Below, one piece after another: positions 1-54,415 of a stretch of 55,331 nt of DNA. This stretch comes from an uncultured Eubacterium sp. (GTDB lineage Bacteria > Bacillota > Clostridia > Lachnospirales > Lachnospiraceae). The stretch spans positions 1-55,331 of the forward strand of contig CAMUML010000026.1 of the NCBI GenBank assembly GCA_947089855.1, in the 5' to 3' direction. The position numbers were made by a program, and so were the translations under genes. The stretch's first letter is position 1, and the number at the start of each line of letters is the position of its first letter. The notes under the pieces are model-generated. The model had not been told where the DNA came from, did not search any database, and saw only the letters and a program-made list of their open reading frames with translations.

Positions 1-53
1 CAATATCGCCCCGAATGGTTACTATGAGCGGCCCCCAGGCCGTGAATAGTAAC
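1..53 (-). repeat. R1 repeat, copy A (cut by the window edge)
   Basis: This is the last 53 bases of the R1 element; it matches the end of copy C at 26169-26221 with few differences. It contains the GGCC-CCCA-GGCC hairpin and ends in GTGAATAGTAAC, the R1 terminus. The remainder lies outside the window. Strand is given relative to copies E and F, which are defined as plus. Confidence 0.85.
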
Positions 54-93: not shown

Positions 94-122
94 TCGACGG
101 TAGCCTCCTCTTGTGATATACT
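94..122 (+). promoter_or_regulatory. Possible promoter of the TetM-NYN gene
   Basis: A -35-like TCGACG (94-99) is followed by 17 bases and TATACT (117-122). If used, transcription starts near 129 and the R2 repeat becomes leader RNA. The -35 is weak, and a second TATACT at 122-127 is the repeat's own end, so this is tentative. Confidence 0.35.
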
Positions 123-208
123 ATACTCACGAACGATAAAGTTTACCATATGATTCAAGATCATGCCGCTTGTGAGTCTGCGTTATTTGGCAAACTTTAG
201 TGTTTTAC
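122..208 (+). repeat. R2 repeat, copy 1
   Basis: Closely matches 35594-35686 (copy 2) and more loosely 49175-49266 (copy 3). It begins TATACTCACGAACG and keeps the TAAAGTTT ... AAACTTTA pair. Its right end lacks the closing AGTATA seen in copy 2 and runs into the GAGGAGG ribosome-binding site (211-217) of the next gene. Confidence 0.8.
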
Positions 209-3100: not shown

Positions 3101-3356
3101 CCACGGACGCTGGGTGATGGGGGCTGCCCGGGTTTCTTGTTCCTAATCCAGAATGTAAGGGGCCCTAAGTATTCTGCAATTTTGGTTATGGCACCGGACG
3201 GACGCGGCACCTTGTCCGCCCTGGCTAACGCCAGCAGCTACAGGTGCCGCTTTCGGCTTCGCCGCCTGTTTTACGGGCAGAATACTAAGGGCCCCTAACA
3301 TTCTTCCAACGTCACAAGAGACCCGGGCAGCCCCCATCACCCGGCTGGTTTCGGCA
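3101..3356 (+). repeat. R3 long fold-back repeat, copy 1
   Basis: A nested hairpin. The outer arm 3109-3140 pairs with 3314-3345, nearly perfectly. The inner arm about 3149-3176 (AATGTAAGGGGCCCTAAGT) pairs with about 3278-3305. The core is GC-rich and holds an apical CTGGCTAACGCCAG hairpin flanked by GCGGCACCT/AGGTGCCGC. The core is shared with copy 2 in the opposite orientation, while the distal part of the outer arm (GGGGGCTGCCCGGG) is specific to this copy. It lies between the convergent TetM-NYN and htpG genes. No coding signal was found. Confidence 0.85.
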
Positions 3357-3544
3357 GGCTATACGTAAAAAACATTTTGGAATTGGATACTTAGGTACTG
3401 TGAAAAAATAACTTTGCAATTTACTTTCCTTTATCTCCGATAGCGCAGCTCAAAAACCAGTTTCATAGCCCGCTATGCGCCTGATTTTTACCCTGCACTC
3501 TCGTATTGCCAACTTGATTCAATTGCCCAGCCTACGGAAAGCTT
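3357..3544. other. Spacer between the two R3 copies
   Basis: About 190 bases with no gene. It is A+T-richer than the flanking repeats. Edges of both R3 copies share CAGCTGG-type sequence next to this spacer (GGCTGGTTT at 3342-3350 and AAACCAGCTGG at 3548-3558, inverted), so the whole block 3101-3800 is a large imperfect inverted repeat around it. The full gene-free stretch here is 3066-3895. Confidence 0.6.
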
Positions 3545-3800
3545 GAGAAAACCAGCTGGATGAGGCGGCGGGGTGGATTGCGGCGACGTTGGAAGAATGT
3601 TTAGTAGCCCTTAGCATTCTGCCCGATAAACAGGCGGCGGAGCCGGGAGCGGCACCTGTAGCTGCTGGCGTTAGCCAGGGCGGACAAGGTGCCGCGTCCG
3701 TCCGGTACCACAGTGTAAATTGCAGAATGCTTAGGGATACTTAACATTCTGGAATAGGAGCCGCAATCCACCCCGCCGCCTCATCCAGCGTCCTGCTTCC
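3545..3800 (-). repeat. R3 long fold-back repeat, copy 2 (inverted)
   Basis: The outer arm 3556-3584 pairs perfectly over 29 bases with 3760-3788; its sequence (GCGGCGGGGTGGATTGCGGC in the distal part) is unlike the arm of copy 1. The inner arm (GAATGTTTAGTAGCCCTTAG, from 3595) pairs with 3724-3751 imperfectly. The core 3640-3705 (GCGGCACCTGTAGCTGCTGG and onward) is the reverse complement of the core of copy 1. Confidence 0.85.
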
Positions 3801-25306: not shown

Positions 25307-25996
25307 CTATTCAATCGTATATCCAACGCCCCAGACGGTTTTGATATACTTCGGCCTCCTTGCAGGTTCGTGCATTTTTTCGCGCAGCCTTGCAATATGC
25401 GTCATAACGGTATTGTTGTTATCCAAATATGCTTCTCCCCAAACCGATTCAAACAGTTCTTCCGAAGATACGACATTTCCGCGGTGTTCGCAAAGGTACC
25501 ATAAAATATTAAATTCCAGCGGCGTTAAAATCAGCTCCCTGCCGTTTAAAAAGCATTTATGGCTGCTTTTGGAGATAGAAAGCCCACGGAAATCATGTTC
25601 TTCTGTTTCATGGAGGTCTGCCGTATTATAGCGGGTATATCTGCGCAGCTGCGATTTTACCCTTGCCATTAGTTCCAGTGGCTGGAAAGGTTTTGTAATA
25701 TAATCATCCGCCCCGAGCGTAAGCCCCATAATCTTATCTACATCTTCTACTTTAGCGGTCAACATGATAATGGGGAATAGATGCTTTTCCCGGATTTTCT
25801 GGCATAGGGTAAACCCATCCATATCCGGCAGCATAATGTCCAAAATAGCCAGGCTCAGTTCTGCCTGGCCTACACATTGCAGTGCATCGGTGGCATTATA
25901 AAATTTGTATACATCATACCCGTCATTTTTTAGGTATACTTCTACTAAATCTGCAATCGCAGTTTCATCATCGACAATCAATATTTTTTCGTTCAT
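25307..25996 (-). CDS. vanR: VanR-type OmpR-family response regulator
   Basis: 229 residues. Receiver domain: KILIVDDE at the start, phospho-Asp in LAILDIMLPDMDG near 52, the Lys in DDYITKPF near 101. The C-terminal winged helix (about 130-228) has LTPLEFNILWYL and GNVVSSEELFESVW, followed by TVMTHIARLREK and the WGVGYTIE end. AAGGAG (plus-strand CTCCTT, 26006-26011) lies nine bases before ATG 25996; the longer frame from 26089 lacks this site. First gene of the van cluster; the direct repeats upstream of vanG are its probable target. Confidence 0.9.
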   Translation of the reverse strand: MNEKILIVDDETAIADLVEVYLKNDGYDVYKFYNATDALQCVGQAELSLAILDIMLPDMDGFTLCQKIREKHLFPIIMLTAKVEDVDKIMGLTLGADDYITKPFQPLELMARVKSQLRRYTRYNTADLHETEEHDFRGLSISKSSHKCFLNGRELILTPLEFNILWYLCEHRGNVVSSEELFESVWGEAYLDNNNTVMTHIARLREKMHEPARRPKYIKTVWGVGYTIE

Positions 25997-26020
25997 TTGT
26001 ATTTGCTCCTTACCATCATT

Positions 26021-26048
26021 ATTATACCTGAAAAATTTATTTCGTAAA
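26021..26048 (-). promoter_or_regulatory. vanRS promoter
   Basis: Minus strand: TTTACG (26048-26043), 16 bases, TATAAT (26026-26021). It gives a leader of only about 20 bases before the ribosome-binding site. Confidence 0.55.
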
Positions 26049-26077
26049 GGCAAATGAGGATAAATTAAAGAGAAATT

Positions 26078-26221
26078 GTTACTATTCACGGGCCAGGAAT
26101 GCGCATAAGCTGCGCATTCCGTGAGAACATGATTCAGGAGTGAGGGGCGATTTTGCGAAGCAAACTTCCAATATCGCCCCGAATGGTTACAATGAACGGC
26201 CCCCAGGCCGTGAATAGTAAC
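26078..26221 (-). repeat. R1 repeat, copy C (complete, 144 bp)
   Basis: A complete element with GTTACTATTCACGG / CCGTGAATAGTAAC ends. Internal hairpins: GGAATGCGCA/TGCGCATTCC, GGGGCGAT (26144-26151) / ATCGCCCC (26173-26180), and a GGCC pair near the end. It is nearly the reverse complement of copy F (45327-45469). It lies between the divergent vanR and AI-2E-family genes; the gap 25997-26332 otherwise holds only the two promoters. Confidence 0.92.
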
Positions 26222-26254
26222 GAGAAATTAAGATATGCCCATCATTACAATAGC

Positions 26255-27626: not shown

Positions 27627-27684
27627 GTTACAGTTCACACCCACGCCATACAGCGGAATGCATGGCGTGGGTGTGAAAAGTAAC
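27627..27684. repeat. R1-like minimal palindrome, copy D
   Basis: A 58-bp hairpin with arms of 23 bases (27627-27649 and 27662-27684), which has the R1 ends GTTAC...TTCAC / GTGAA...GTAAC but its own arm sequence ACCCACGCCAT and no internal modules. In the 334-base gap 27554-27887 it and the preceding terminator are the only features seen. Confidence 0.7.
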
Positions 27685-35591: not shown

Positions 35592-35593
35592 TC

Positions 35594-35686
35594 TATACTC
35601 ACGAGCGATAAAGTTTACCATATGATTCAAGATAATGACGCTCGTGAGTCGGCATTATTTGGCAAACTTTAGTGTTTGTCAGTATA
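35594..35686 (+). repeat. R2 repeat, copy 2 (complete, 93 bp)
   Basis: The reference copy. Ends TATACT / AGTATA; ACTCACGAGCG (35597-35607) pairs perfectly with CGCTCGTGAGT (35639-35649); TAAAGTTT (35609-35616) pairs with AAACTTTA (35664-35671). The two pairs interleave. It begins three bases after the stop of the M56 gene and abuts the next terminator. Confidence 0.85.
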
Positions 35687-42966: not shown

Positions 42967-42989
42967 GTTGCGCGTAGGCAGAATTTTCC

Positions 42990-43164
42990 GTTACTATTCA
43001 CAGCCAGTTTGCTCTTGACAAACATTCTAAGTTATGAGGCTGTAAATCGTAACATTCGCAGGCTCATGGAAAGAATTTGCCTTGCAAATTGGAGCCTGCT
43101 CACTCCTGAATCAGCTTGGCAGCCACCTGGACAGCTAGGTGTTCAGGTGGCTGTGAATAGTAAC
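42990..43164 (+). repeat. R1 repeat, copy E (complete, 175 bp, divergent arms)
   Basis: Same modular layout as copy F: GTTACTATTCACAGCC ... GGCTGT..GTAAC hairpin; ATTC; stem GCAGGCTC (43058-43065) / GAGCCTGC (43092-43099) around an ATGGAAAG...TTGC loop; the linker TCACTCCTGAATCA; a third hairpin CAGCCACCTG/CAGGTGGCTG; and the GTGAATAGTAAC end. The stems differ from F but remain paired; loop starts and linker are the same. Confidence 0.9.
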
Positions 43165-43204
43165 AATTTTCCTGCTGACACCATAACTAAGGAGGCACAT
43201 AGCT

Positions 43205-43831
43205 ATGAAACGGAAACGGTATGCGGCACTGTGTATCTTGGCAGCGGCCAGTATTGCGGCGGGCTGCGGAAATTCATTTAAAGCTTCGGATAGTACCGTT
43301 TATATAACAAAAAAAGGGCCAGTCATCGGCGCCAATATAGAGGATTTTAATAAAGAATATTATGATGAAGGGGAGCTCAAAAAATATATAACCGAATCCG
43401 TGGAGGACTATGTTGCATCCAATGGAAACGGAAGCGTTGAGCTGGACAGTTTTAAAACAGAATCGTCCGGCGATGGTGTCCAGGCACATTTGTACTTAAA
43501 TTATGCAAGCTATATTGACTATGCCCAGTTTAATGGCGTCGAGCTGTATGCAGGTACTGTGCAGCAGGCCCAGGAAGAAGGCTACGCGTTTGACGGGGCA
43601 TTTCAAAAAGCGGAAAAAGGGGAACTAGCCGGAAGCGCTGATGCGGCGGAGATTTTAGCGCAAGAGGGGCTGAAAGCAGTTATTATAAAAGAAGAAACAC
43701 TTGTCAAGATAGACGGGGACATACAGTATGTATCGGACGGAAACGTAGAATTGGCCGGGGAAGATACTGCGAAAGTACATTATGGCATGGAAGATGCAGA
43801 TGCCCAGGCGGCATATATTGTGTACCAGTAA
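43205..43831 (+). CDS. Unknown lipoprotein
   Basis: 208 residues. A short basic start and hydrophobic stretch end in lipobox SIAAGC (Cys at 20), so a membrane-anchored extracellular lipoprotein is predicted. The mature protein is acidic (DSTVYITKKGPVIGANIEDFNKEYYDEGELKKYI ... VEDYVASNGNGSVEL) without recognisable enzymatic motifs; secondary structure looks alpha/beta. AAGGAGG ten bases before ATG. It is preceded by a strong promoter and a 230-base leader made up mostly of R1 copy E. It lies between recO and glyQS; its function is not known. Confidence 0.8.
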   Translation: MKRKRYAALCILAAASIAAGCGNSFKASDSTVYITKKGPVIGANIEDFNKEYYDEGELKKYITESVEDYVASNGNGSVELDSFKTESSGDGVQAHLYLNYASYIDYAQFNGVELYAGTVQQAQEEGYAFDGAFQKAEKGELAGSADAAEILAQEGLKAVIIKEETLVKIDGDIQYVSDGNVELAGEDTAKVHYGMEDADAQAAYIVYQ

Positions 43832-43906
43832 AAAAGGGCTGCCGGCACAGCATGCTGGCCCCTGCCCGGATAGGATATACGGCAGCAAGGAAATGGAGGA
43901 AAGCAA

Positions 43907-45304
43907 ATGGAAAAATCAATGGAAAAAATAGTCGCTTTGGCGAAGGCAAGGGGCTTTATCTACCCTGGTTCTGAGATTTACGGTGGCCTTGCAAATACAT
44001 GGGACTATGGCAACCTTGGCGTAGAACTGAAAAACAATGTCAAACGGGCATGGTGGCAGAAATTTGTCCAGGAAAACCCTTATAACGTAGGCGTCGACTG
44101 TGCGATTTTAATGAATCCGAAGACCTGGGAAGCGTCCGGCCACCTCGGCGGATTTTCCGACCCGTTGATGGACTGCCGCGAATGCCATGAGCGCTTCCGT
44201 GCAGACCAGCTGATCGAAGATTATGCAAAAGGGCATGGCATTGCCTTGGAAGAAAGTGTAGACGGCTGGTCCAACGATGCTATGCAGTCCTTTATCGAAG
44301 AACACCAGGTAGCCTGCCCAAGCTGCGGAAAACATAACTTTACCGACATCCGCCAGTTTAACTTGATGTTTAAAACATTCCAGGGAGTAACCGAGGATGC
44401 GAAAAATACCATTTATCTAAGGCCGGAAACGGCACAGGGCATCTTTGTCAATTTTAGAAATGTGCAGCGTACTTCACGCAAAAAAATCCCATTTGGCATT
44501 GCACAGGTCGGCAAATCGTTCCGCAACGAGATCACGCCAGGCAACTTTACCTTCCGCACTAGGGAATTTGAACAGATGGAGCTGGAATTTTTCTGCGAGC
44601 CGGGCACAGACCTGGAGTGGTTCCAGTATTGGCGCGGTTTTTGCCGCGACTGGCTGGTCCGCTTGGGCATCAAGGAAGAGGAGCTGCGCCTGCGTGACCA
44701 CGACCCGGCAGAACTAGCATTTTACAGCAAAGCCACGACCGACTTTGAATTCCTTTTCCCATTTGGCTGGGGCGAGCTGTGGGGCATTGCCGACCGCACC
44801 GATTATGACCTGACGCAGCACCAAAATACATCCGGCCAGGACATGTCCTATTTTGACGATACCAAAAATGAAAAATATATCCCATATGTGATCGAGCCGT
44901 CACTCGGCGCGGACCGTGTCGTACTTGCATTTTTGTGCGCAGCCTATGATGAGGAAAATATTGGGACGGAAGAAAAGCCGGATATGCGCACGGTCCTTCA
45001 CTTCCATCCGGCCCTGGCCCCGGTTAAGATCGGTGTCCTGCCACTGTCCAAAAAGCTCAACGAAGGCGCGGAAGGCGTTTTTGCACAGCTTTCCAAAAAA
45101 TACAACTGCGAATTTGACGACCGTGGCAATATCGGCAAACGTTACCGCCGCCAAGATGAAATCGGTACGCCGTTTTGCGTCACCTATGACTTTGATTCCG
45201 AACAAGACCATGCAGTCACCGTGCGCTTCCGCGATTCTATGGAACAGGAGCGCGTAGCCATAGACGGGCTCTTTGCGTATTTTGCAGATAAATTTGATTT
45301 TTGA
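43907..45304 (+). CDS. glyQS: Glycyl-tRNA synthetase, dimeric eukaryote-like type
   Basis: 465 residues, class II synthetase. Visible: [23 protein letters not shown] at the start, the CxxC...CxxC zinc pair (CRECHERF near 88 and CPSCGKHNF near 137), motif 2 [25 protein letters not shown] near 205, motif 3 [14 protein letters not shown] near 330, and a C-terminal anticodon-binding domain ([11 protein letters not shown]). GGAGG nine bases upstream supports ATG 43907. No T-box leader was found in the 75 bases before it. Possibly co-transcribed with the lipoprotein gene. Confidence 0.95.
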
Positions 45305-45326
45305 GGATAGTTTTGGCAGTTTTTCA

Positions 45327-45469
45327 GTTACTTTTCACGGCCTGGGGGCCGCTCATAGTAACATTCGGGGCGATATGGAAAGTTTGCTTCGCAAAATCGC
45401 CCCTCACTCCTGAATCATGTTCTCACGGAATGCGCAGCTTATGCGCATTCCTGGCCCGTGAAAAGTAAT
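45327..45469 (+). repeat. R1 repeat, copy F (complete, 143 bp)
   Basis: Reverse-complement match to copy C. Modules in order: GTTACTTTTCACGGCC-TGGG-GGCC...TAGTAAC; stem GGGGCGAT (45367-45374) / ATCGCCCC (45396-45403) around ATGGAAAGTTTGCTTCGCAAA's loop; linker TCACTCCTGAATCA; GGAATGCGCA/TGCGCATTCC; end GTGAAAAGTAAT. It lies after the glyQS stop and before the ppdK promoter in a 350-base gap; no gene was seen there. Confidence 0.92.
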
Positions 45470-45508
45470 AGTTTTTCATCCGTTTTTGATACAAAACATA
45501 AAAAATAG

Positions 45509-49174: not shown

Positions 49175-49266
49175 TATACTCACGAGCGATGGCATTTACC
49201 TATACTGTTCAAGGCATTGTCACTGGTGAGTCAGCATTATCGACAAATTTTAGTGCTTGCCAGTAT
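49175..49266 (+). repeat. R2 repeat, copy 3 (divergent)
   Basis: Starts TATACTCACGAGCGAT and ends TTTTAGTGCTTGCCAGTAT. ACTCAC/GTGAGT and the AAATT pair remain, although the middle has diverged (GGCATTTACC for AAGTTTACC). Confidence 0.75.
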
Positions 49267-53882: not shown

Positions 53883-54415
53883 ATGAAAGGTAAAAAAGCG
53901 CATAGGCTGGTGGCTGGCAGCAATTTAAAAGAAGATAGGATCAGGGGGCATTCCATAGCGTATGAGGGGGATCTGGTTATCGATGATAAGCTTGAGGAAG
54001 AAGGCACGGTAAAATTCTTTGAGAATCTGGGTGGAAGCGTATACATGTTCATGGAACCTTCGGTAATGGAGAAACTAGTACACCGTAAAATAAATAACTG
54101 GTTATATTGCGCCGGATAAATCTTCGAGAGTGCATGGCAAAAACCGGAGGTGTACCGGGGTACATTGAGGATTTTTGCCATGTGCTCCCGGAGATTTAGA
54201 CAAACAAGATGGCCAGTTATTTATTTTACGGTGTACTAGTCATGATTGGTTCGGCAGAGCTTGAAGATCTGGGCGGGAAGAAACTGTATATGAGGAAGAT
54301 TTTTTACGAGTACGGGCATGACGAGCTGCAGGATACTATAGCAGACTGGATCTCGTATTTTGCAGACTTTTACGGTTTTTCCTTCATATTTCTGGATTTA
54401 AGGAAGCAGGCATGA
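53883..54415 (+). pseudogene. Unknown gene interrupted by a palindromic insertion
   Basis: Two open parts. Part 1 (53883-54119, 78 codons, MKGKKAHRLVAGSNLKEDRI ... YMFMEPSVMEKL) runs into the left arm of the palindrome and ends there. Part 2 (54209-54415, 68 codons) starts in the right arm and continues MIGSAELEDLGGKKLYMRKI ... SFIFLDLRKQA. The codon phase at CTA in the left ACTAGT (54075) and at CTA in the right ACTAGT (54236) is the same, so removing 161 bases rejoins one frame of about 123 residues (..VMEK-LV-MIGSAEL..). No family recognised. GAAAGGATGG precedes Met 53883. Alternatively these are two separate small genes sharing a hairpin. Confidence 0.5.
54074..54240. repeat. 167-bp nested palindrome (fold-back element)
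   Basis: Perfect 28-base outer arms, 54074-54101 and 54213-54240 (ACTAGTACACCGTAAAATAA...). Imperfect inner arms, 54118-54145 and 54169-54197 (GCATGGCAAAAA / TTTTTGCCATG). Apical TGTACC-GG-GGTACA at 54151-54164. No internal gene. The ends are ACTAGT, itself palindromic, so a CTAG target duplication would be hidden. Confidence 0.9.

What the first reader, a model, noticed from the sequence alone, without database searches (positions are those of the whole stretch)
42990..45469. R1: modular hairpin element with compensatory stem changes
Copies E (42990-43164) and F (45327-45469) align module by module: the middle stem is GCAGGCTC/GAGCCTGC in E and GGGGCGAT/ATCGCCCC in F, while the loop start ATGGAAAG and the linker TCACTCCTGAATCA are identical. 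The 5' and 3' hairpins also differ in sequence but pair in both. Copies A, B, C and D lie elsewhere in the window. Covarying stems with fixed loops are the mark of a structured RNA (or a structure-recognised DNA element), possibly undescribed.
Basis: seen in the sequence. Interest (0 to 1): 0.8.

Follow-up and report, generated by a model that had tools for sequence, protein, structure and literature searches.

The report
Jumping DNA element of covarying hairpins
The two look-alike hairpin clusters are copies of a small jumping DNA element found many times in this gut bacterium and in a number of relatives; its hairpin arms change together while keeping their pairing, in a way that fits folded DNA better than a hidden RNA.

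Summary
E and F are complete copies (175 and 143 bp) of a miniature transposon-like element: inverted ends, 8-9 bp target-site duplications, 148 linker matches in this genome. The copies read here form two subfamilies, each about 2% diverged. A model finds relatives in 24 of 299 genomes of the family, own included; 15 others show 8-bp duplications. Across 74 copies from 31 genomes, 23 of 25 stem pairs have changes on both sides, 447 cells against 157 in shuffles, while loops, linker and ends stay alike. So the covariation is real. An RNA is less well supported: in 32 distinct consensus hairpins G-U is 3 and A-C 4 of 235 pairs (tRNA stems 22 and 2 of 336); gene orientation is unbiased; Rfam has no match. 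A lean of single copies to A-C (39 against 24 events, p 0.08) leaves an RNA of the opposite strand open. Best reading: an apparently undescribed MITE family of Watson-Crick palindromes, kept complementary as folded DNA or by template switching. No autonomous parent was found.

The parts
42982..42989 (.). left target-site duplication of copy E (AATTTTCC)
42990..43164 (+). copy E, complete element (E-type, 175 bp)
42990..43053 (+). copy E, 5' module (left end plus internal inverted copy of the end)
43058..43099 (+). copy E, middle hairpin: arms GCAGGCTC / GAGCCTGC, inner hairpin TTTGC..GCAAA
43100..43113 (+). copy E, conserved linker TCACTCCTGAATCA
43120..43153 (+). copy E, 3' hairpin
43165..43172 (.). 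right target-site duplication of copy E
45318..45326 (.). left target-site duplication of copy F (AGTTTTTCA)
45327..45469 (+). copy F, complete element (F-type, 143 bp)
45327..45362 (+). copy F, 5' module
45367..45403 (+). copy F, middle hairpin: arms GGGGCGAT / ATCGCCCC
45404..45417 (+). copy F, conserved linker TCACTCCTGAATCA
45427..45451 (+). copy F, 3' hairpin
45470..45478 (.). right target-site duplication of copy F
26078..26221 (-). complete F-type copy; duplication AATTTCTC at 26070-26077 and 26222-26229
1..53 (-). partial copy (5' part) cut by the contig end
6341..6399 (-). partial copy (linker end, 3' hairpin, right end)
27627..27684 (+). 58-bp hairpin with the same kind of ends and no linker

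Best explanation
It is a non-autonomous DNA transposon (MITE) family of Lachnospiraceae, mostly 131-175 bp, made of a 5' palindrome (left end plus an internal inverted copy of it), a middle hairpin, a conserved linker, a 3' hairpin and a right end inverted to the left one. Shown: inverted ends, 8-bp target duplications in the window genome and 15 others, nesting, tandem copies, recent amplification, and covariation that keeps Watson-Crick complementarity. Inferred: a DDE-type transposase acts in trans, with cuts staggered by 8 bp; the palindromes matter as folded DNA (hairpins in single-stranded or cruciform DNA) when the element is recognised or copied; arms stay complementary by selection on mobile lineages, helped by template switching between arms.
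For: 148 linker matches in G000, reversed-pattern control 0. Target duplications: 42 of 58 complete copies against 1.3% with shuffled flanks; 45 of 73 copies, these from 15 other genomes, match at 7 or 8 of 8 bases against 0.5%. F inserted in E with its own duplication (L005). Relatives in 24 of 299 family genomes, own included. Covariation: 447 doubly changed cells against 157 +- 10, score 0.553 against at most 0.166 for slid controls; the 3' hairpin stem, which is not paired in the search model, has 9 of 10 pairs changed on both sides. Few wobbles: 32 distinct consensus hairpins give 221 Watson-Crick, 3 G-U, 4 A-C, 7 other of 235 pairs, against 305, 22, 2, 7 of 336 in tRNA stems; p 0.003 for G-U, 0.007 for A-C as opposite-strand G-U. 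51 of 58 copies are not inside an ORF; 19 point with and 14 against both neighbouring genes, p 0.49.
Against: No autonomous parent with these ends was found: IS256, ISL3, IS1595 and DDE_Tnp_1 searched in 13 genus genomes (flanks of only the listed loci examined), IS66 in the own and 14 other genomes; other transposase families were not searched. Nothing shows that the hairpins form or matter. Mismatches lean to A-C, which is G-U on the opposite strand: 27 cells against 2 in F copies (9 against 2 distinct changes), 39 against 24 distinct changes over 18 groups (p 0.08), 55 against 36 in A3, all of the excess in the 3' hairpin, 29 against 10, 58 against 13 in the middle stem of 201 copies. In F copies none of 38 departures in the local hairpins is compensated; the outer ends have 3 compensated changes.
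Confidence: 0.66

Rival explanations
1. A structured RNA (regulator or ribozyme-like), read from the linker strand or more likely from the opposite strand, carried in a mobile element; selection keeps the RNA fold.
For: Strong covariation with fixed loop and linker; stable RNA folds; mismatches lean to A-C on the linker strand, that is G-U on the opposite strand; pneumococcal BOX elements are transcribed and folded (PMC3049150 abstract).
Against: G-U rare in consensuses on either strand; the A-C lean rests partly on two columns shared by 8 and 10 F copies; no orientation bias; no Rfam match; no match in 275 of 299 family genomes at the threshold used.
Confidence: 0.18
2. Covariation without function: template switching between the arms of imperfect palindromes makes both arms alike, so stems drift together with no selection on structure; only ends, loops and linker are selected.
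For: Near-perfect Watson-Crick arms with few wobbles are what arm-to-arm copying gives; in G153 the 5' palindrome has five end sequences, four matched at 10 of 10 and one at 9 of 10 bases by the internal arm, read by eye; where left and right ends differ, the internal arm sides with the left at 43 positions and with the right at 5. Template switching homogenises inverted-repeat arms (PMC8604942, PMC7202029: start of abstracts in the listing).
Against: F copies show 38 uncompensated and 0 compensated departures in the local hairpins, so correction is not fast there; over 18 groups doubly changed cells are 25 paired and 27 unpaired; arm length and spacing are largely kept across genera.
Confidence: 0.35
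3. The hairpins act after insertion, for example as terminators or mRNA stabilisers for the host genes beside them.
For: Most copies lie between genes, some within 30 bp of an ORF end pointing at them, as F does behind glyS.
Against: No orientation bias; no consistent T-run after the stems, judged by eye; patchy presence (exact pattern in 3 of 13 genus genomes, own included).
Confidence: 0.06

Closest known systems
MITEs of bacteria (review PMC10969869, passages read)
   Same: short, no ORF, inverted ends, target duplications, many intergenic copies, strong predicted folding
   Different: family-wide covariation of internal hairpins across genera; an internal third copy of the end; no parent found
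REPINs mobilised by RAYT transposases (PMC3116915, passages read)
   Same: mobile hairpin DNA; that paper reports compensatory changes on both sides of the hairpin
   Different: here inverted ends with 8-bp target duplications; no RAYT gene was looked for
BOX elements of Streptococcus pneumoniae (PMC3049150, abstract and section 5 read)
   Same: modular, folded, with inverted ends and target duplications
   Different: different host group and module plan; sequences were not compared here
bcr1 of the Bacillus cereus group (search listing and passages of PMC2267715; otherwise recalled)
   Same: mobile repeat of about 150 bp with a conserved fold
   Different: different hosts; recalled target duplication is 5 bp; not compared here

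Membership tests
MITE (non-autonomous DNA transposon) | terminal inverted repeats | tested here: met
   GTTACTATTCAC / GTGAATAGTAAC and variants
MITE (non-autonomous DNA transposon) | target-site duplications of fixed length | tested here: met
   8 bp; 42 of 58 own copies, 45 of 73 copies elsewhere, controls 1.3% and 0.5%
MITE (non-autonomous DNA transposon) | short, multi-copy, without transposase gene | tested here: met
   mostly 131-175 bp, 148 linker matches
MITE (non-autonomous DNA transposon) | ends match an autonomous element | tested here: inconclusive
   not found in the families, genomes and loci examined
Structured RNA (Rfam-like) | base pairs kept by compensatory change | tested here: met
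Structured RNA (Rfam-like) | G-U pairs at an RNA-like rate on the linker strand | tested here: not met
   3 of 235 distinct consensus pairs against 22 of 336 in tRNA stems
Structured RNA (Rfam-like) | G-U pairs preferred on the opposite strand (A-C on the linker strand) | tested here: inconclusive
   4 of 235 consensus pairs, but 39 against 24 distinct changes in copies, p 0.08
Structured RNA (Rfam-like) | match to a known family | tested here: not met
   0 at gathering in the window; one chance-level match over an element in six loci
Structured RNA (Rfam-like) | transcribed | not testable with these tools
   no RNA-seq data at hand
REPIN/RAYT | no target-site duplication (recalled) | tested here: not met
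   8-bp duplications present
REPIN/RAYT | RAYT transposase gene in the genome | not tested
   no search made
BOX element | boxA/boxB/boxC sequence modules | not tested
   BOX sequences were not fetched

The most novel reading that the evidence does not exclude
A family of mobile elements whose transposition depends on the shape, not the sequence, of several internal DNA hairpins, read by a still unknown trans-acting transposase; structure-level selection on DNA would have left a family-wide covariation record almost free of G-U pairs.
Probability: 0.23. Interest if true: 0.75.

Novelty: new variant of a known kind. Interest (0 to 1): 0.5.

Why it matters
Covariation is the standard proof of a functional RNA. 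This family passes that test, yet its consensus stems are almost free of G-U, so it is a test case for telling RNA folds from DNA palindromes and a possible source of false RNA calls in gut metagenomes. It also shapes genomes: 148 linker matches in one genome, copies close to genes on either side, and contigs that end inside copies. If hairpin shape is what a transposase reads, the 12 distinct consensus middle stems already seen in nature are a ready set of variants to test it.

Tried and rejected
Rfam: none at gathering in the window; in six loci one chance-level match over an element (CC0196, 20.7 bits against 35). IS66, IS256, ISL3, IS1595 and DDE_Tnp_1 as parent: ISL3 and IS1595 had no match in 13 genus genomes, IS256 none in the own genome; among the loci fetched (39, 12; for DDE_Tnp_1 30 loci of a list of well over 100 matches) none had a transposase between a pair of these ends. 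The DDE_Tnp_1 genes on contigs C82 and C93 first looked like the parent; C82 is a tandem transposase unit with other ends, and C93 is a fragment inside another element that sits in the 3' arm of a copy. Inverted end pairs 1-3 kb apart in G285: one pair, which encloses an ordinary gene (prfC-like, recalled from its sequence) and two separate short elements. G128: 13 exact ends; no transposase recognised in the four stretches read. Terminator role and RNA role: see rivals. Plasmids: no match to F or to a G285 copy. Phages: one partial match (49% of F, 77% identity, MT836555), not followed. Viral contigs: 2 pattern matches that lack the rest of the element. Four of 59 genome contigs stretches (L099, L103, L111, L138) were judged chance by eye and left out.

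Dropped rows: of 78 distinct copies read in G000, 20 were incomplete and left out of the duplication test; of 89 model matches elsewhere, 16 had no recognisable pair of ends; 2 matches without linker were left out; groups with fewer than 3 copies were left out; tRNA stems with fewer than 4 of 7 (acceptor) or 3 of 5 (T) Watson-Crick pairs were left out. Only the first 100 of 148 linker matches in G000 were listed.

Full report
What is there. Each runs from GTTAC to GTAAC or GTAAT and is bounded by a direct repeat: AATTTTCC around E, AGTTTTTCA around F. A third complete copy lies at 26078-26221 on the minus strand with AATTTCTC on both sides. Two partial copies and one 58-bp hairpin with the same kind of ends complete the set found in the window. 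The window is contig C26 of a 4.08-Mb, 101-contig assembly; its first 53 bases are a copy cut by the contig end, so the repeat probably breaks the assembly there.

Own genome. The linker with up to one mismatch occurs 148 times, the reversed control pattern never. I read 78 distinct copies. Apart from truncated ones they form two subfamilies: F-type (usually 144 bp, arms GGGGCGAT/ATCGCCCC) and E-type (175 bp, arms GCAGGCTC/GAGCCTGC). Copies differ from their consensus by 3.4 of 144 and 3.2 of 175 positions on average in 41 and 14 aligned copies, so amplification is recent. Of 58 copies with both ends, 42 carry a target-site duplication by my score, 37 of them perfect at 8 bp and 3 perfect at 9 bp; with flanks shuffled between copies the rate is 1.3%. 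In L005 an F-type copy sits inside an E-type copy with its own duplication. 7 of 58 lie inside an ORF of 80 or more codons; 19 are co-oriented with both neighbouring genes and 14 opposite (p 0.49), 11 lie between divergent and 5 between convergent genes, and 9 have one side unresolved.

Other genomes. A pattern for loop plus linker hits 3 of 61 genomes, own included, all in the same genus, 3 of 13 there. A covariance model of the middle hairpin and linker (11 sequences) matches 24 of 299 family genomes, own included, at E 1e-3 or better, in 23 of 298 genera, a lower bound because only 17 candidates per genome were scored. These relatives show many stem versions between the same anchors: GGGGCGAT, GCAGGCTC, GCAGCCCTC, GCAAATCC, GCAAACCC, GCAAAAATCC, GCGCTTAAAC and others; inner hairpins TTTGC/GCAAA, TCAGC/GCTGA, TCGCC/GGCGA; 3' hairpin arms equally varied, often around a loop GYAAR or GTTTA. 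In 73 of 89 such copies both ends were found; 32 have an identical 8-bp duplication and 13 match at 7 of 8, together from 15 genomes; shuffled flanks give 0.5%.

Covariation. I aligned 74 copies from 31 genomes by sequence alone (MAFFT; genomes counted). RNAalifold finds the middle stem only, 8 of 8 pairs with changes on both sides. With the middle stem, inner hairpin and 3' hairpin named (25 pairs), 83.9% of 1790 cells pair (60.7% in shuffles), 447 cells are changed on both sides (157 +- 10), 23 of 25 pairs have such a change, and the covariation score is 0.553 against at most 0.166 for structures slid by 1-3 columns. The tool warns that related sequences can exceed shuffles without structure; the slid control keeps relatedness. 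The 3' hairpin stem was not paired in the search model, so its 9 of 10 covarying pairs do not come from the choice of sequences. In 45 copies with a duplication (10 end positions each), left, internal and right copies of the end agree at 332 positions; left and right agree against the internal copy at 67, left and internal against the right at 43, internal and right against the left at 5, all differ at 3. So when the ends differ, the internal arm sides with the left end (p 1e-8); copies are not independent, and the offset of the internal arm was chosen for the best match, which leans the same way.

RNA or DNA. A structured RNA tolerates G-U on its own strand; the same change read on the other strand is A-C. 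In 32 distinct consensus hairpins (18 groups of 3 or more copies) I count 221 Watson-Crick pairs, 3 G-U, 4 A-C and 7 other. In 33 tRNAs found in the fetched stretches, acceptor and T stems give 305 Watson-Crick, 22 G-U, 2 A-C and 7 other (the own-genome tRNA search gave 24 matches). The share of G-U is lower in the element (p 0.003), and so is A-C taken as opposite-strand G-U (p 0.007). Single copies tell a less clear story: A-C outnumbers G-U 55 to 36 in the 74 copies, all of the excess in the 3' hairpin (29 to 10); 58 to 13 in the middle stem, level in the other two helices, in 201 copies (whose scoring favoured G-T in those two); 27 to 2 cells or 9 to 2 distinct changes in F copies, two columns giving 18 of the 27; and 39 to 24 distinct changes over 18 groups, p 0.08. 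So nothing speaks for an RNA of the linker strand; an RNA of the opposite strand is not excluded. What the consensuses keep is Watson-Crick complementarity.

How it most likely works. Shown: inverted ends, 8-bp duplications, nesting, tandem copies with 8-bp spacers (L258), recent bursts. Inferred: a transposase with cuts staggered by 8 bp, acting in trans. The internal inverted copy of the left end lets the left end fold back on itself or pair with the right end. Recombination between the internal and the right copy, which are direct repeats, would leave only the 5' palindrome; such 27-29-bp units between perfect 8-bp duplications exist (L281, L291, L315). The hairpins probably matter as folded DNA during recognition or copying; alternatively they stay complementary only because replication copies one arm from the other. 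F copies show no compensated change in the local hairpins (0 of 38 departures) and 3 in the outer ends, while G153 shows five versions of the 5' palindrome, four matched in full and one at 9 of 10 bases. Within the 18 groups 25 doubly changed cells pair and 27 do not. I cannot separate selection from template switching with one genome per species.

Comparison with the known. It meets the tests for a MITE except that no parent was found. It resembles REPINs in having compensatory hairpin changes (PMC3116915, passages read) but has target duplications. It resembles BOX in being modular and folded (PMC3049150, abstract and section 5). Prior description: searches for MITEs in Lachnospiraceae, in Roseburia or Butyrivibrio, for structured RNAs in Lachnospiraceae and for MITEs with compensatory stems listed no paper on this element; only open-licence papers are held and long result lists were capped (20 of 97, 12 of 5,119, 12 of 329 shown).

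Verdict. The element is a family-wide, apparently undescribed MITE whose palindromes covary in a manner closer to DNA than to RNA.

Noticed in passing
L007, L012, L036, L038, L044, L049, L059, L174 (also L104, L133 of CAJTDL): A second MITE-like element with ends CAATGTCATTWACTTA sits in the 3' arm (CCCGTGAAT) of copies, with that 9-mer on both sides in those read, in more than one species; it looks like a site-preferring element nested in this one. Only stretches around copies were read, so the preference is not tested.
   Followed up: partly
L008 from 2835, L027, L066: A further element type with the same ends and loop (ATTGGAAGTTCGCC..GGCGAA) but arms GCATCCGGCC and another linker.
   Followed up: no
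L277, L203, L106, L113: A module CCTAAAGGACTAGCTTYGCG inserted in or before the 3' hairpin of copies from two or more genomes.
   Followed up: no
L258 162-497: Copies in tandem separated by the same 8 bases.
   Followed up: no
L281, L291, L315: 27-29-bp units (5' palindrome alone) between perfect 8-bp duplications, like solo remnants.
   Followed up: partly
window 121-205, 35593-35677, 49175-49200: Another dispersed repeat, CTATACTCACGARCGATAAAGTTTACC.., 93% identical between its two longer copies.
   Followed up: no
window 54074-54240; L001: Inverted-repeat element with ends ACTAGTACACCGTAAAATAAATAACTGG; the same sequence interrupts a copy in L001.
   Followed up: no
window 3109-3789: Large inverted repeats (143-nt arms, 87% complementary).
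   Followed up: no
window 25307-26089 (-): Response regulator scoring above the NCBIfam cut-off for a VanR family (398 bits, cut-off 350), next to the copy at 26078-26221; other van genes were not looked for.
   Followed up: no
L196 1889-2114 (-): Match to Rfam SpF66 sRNA above its gathering score (45.8 against 42) near a tRNA, outside the element.
   Followed up: no
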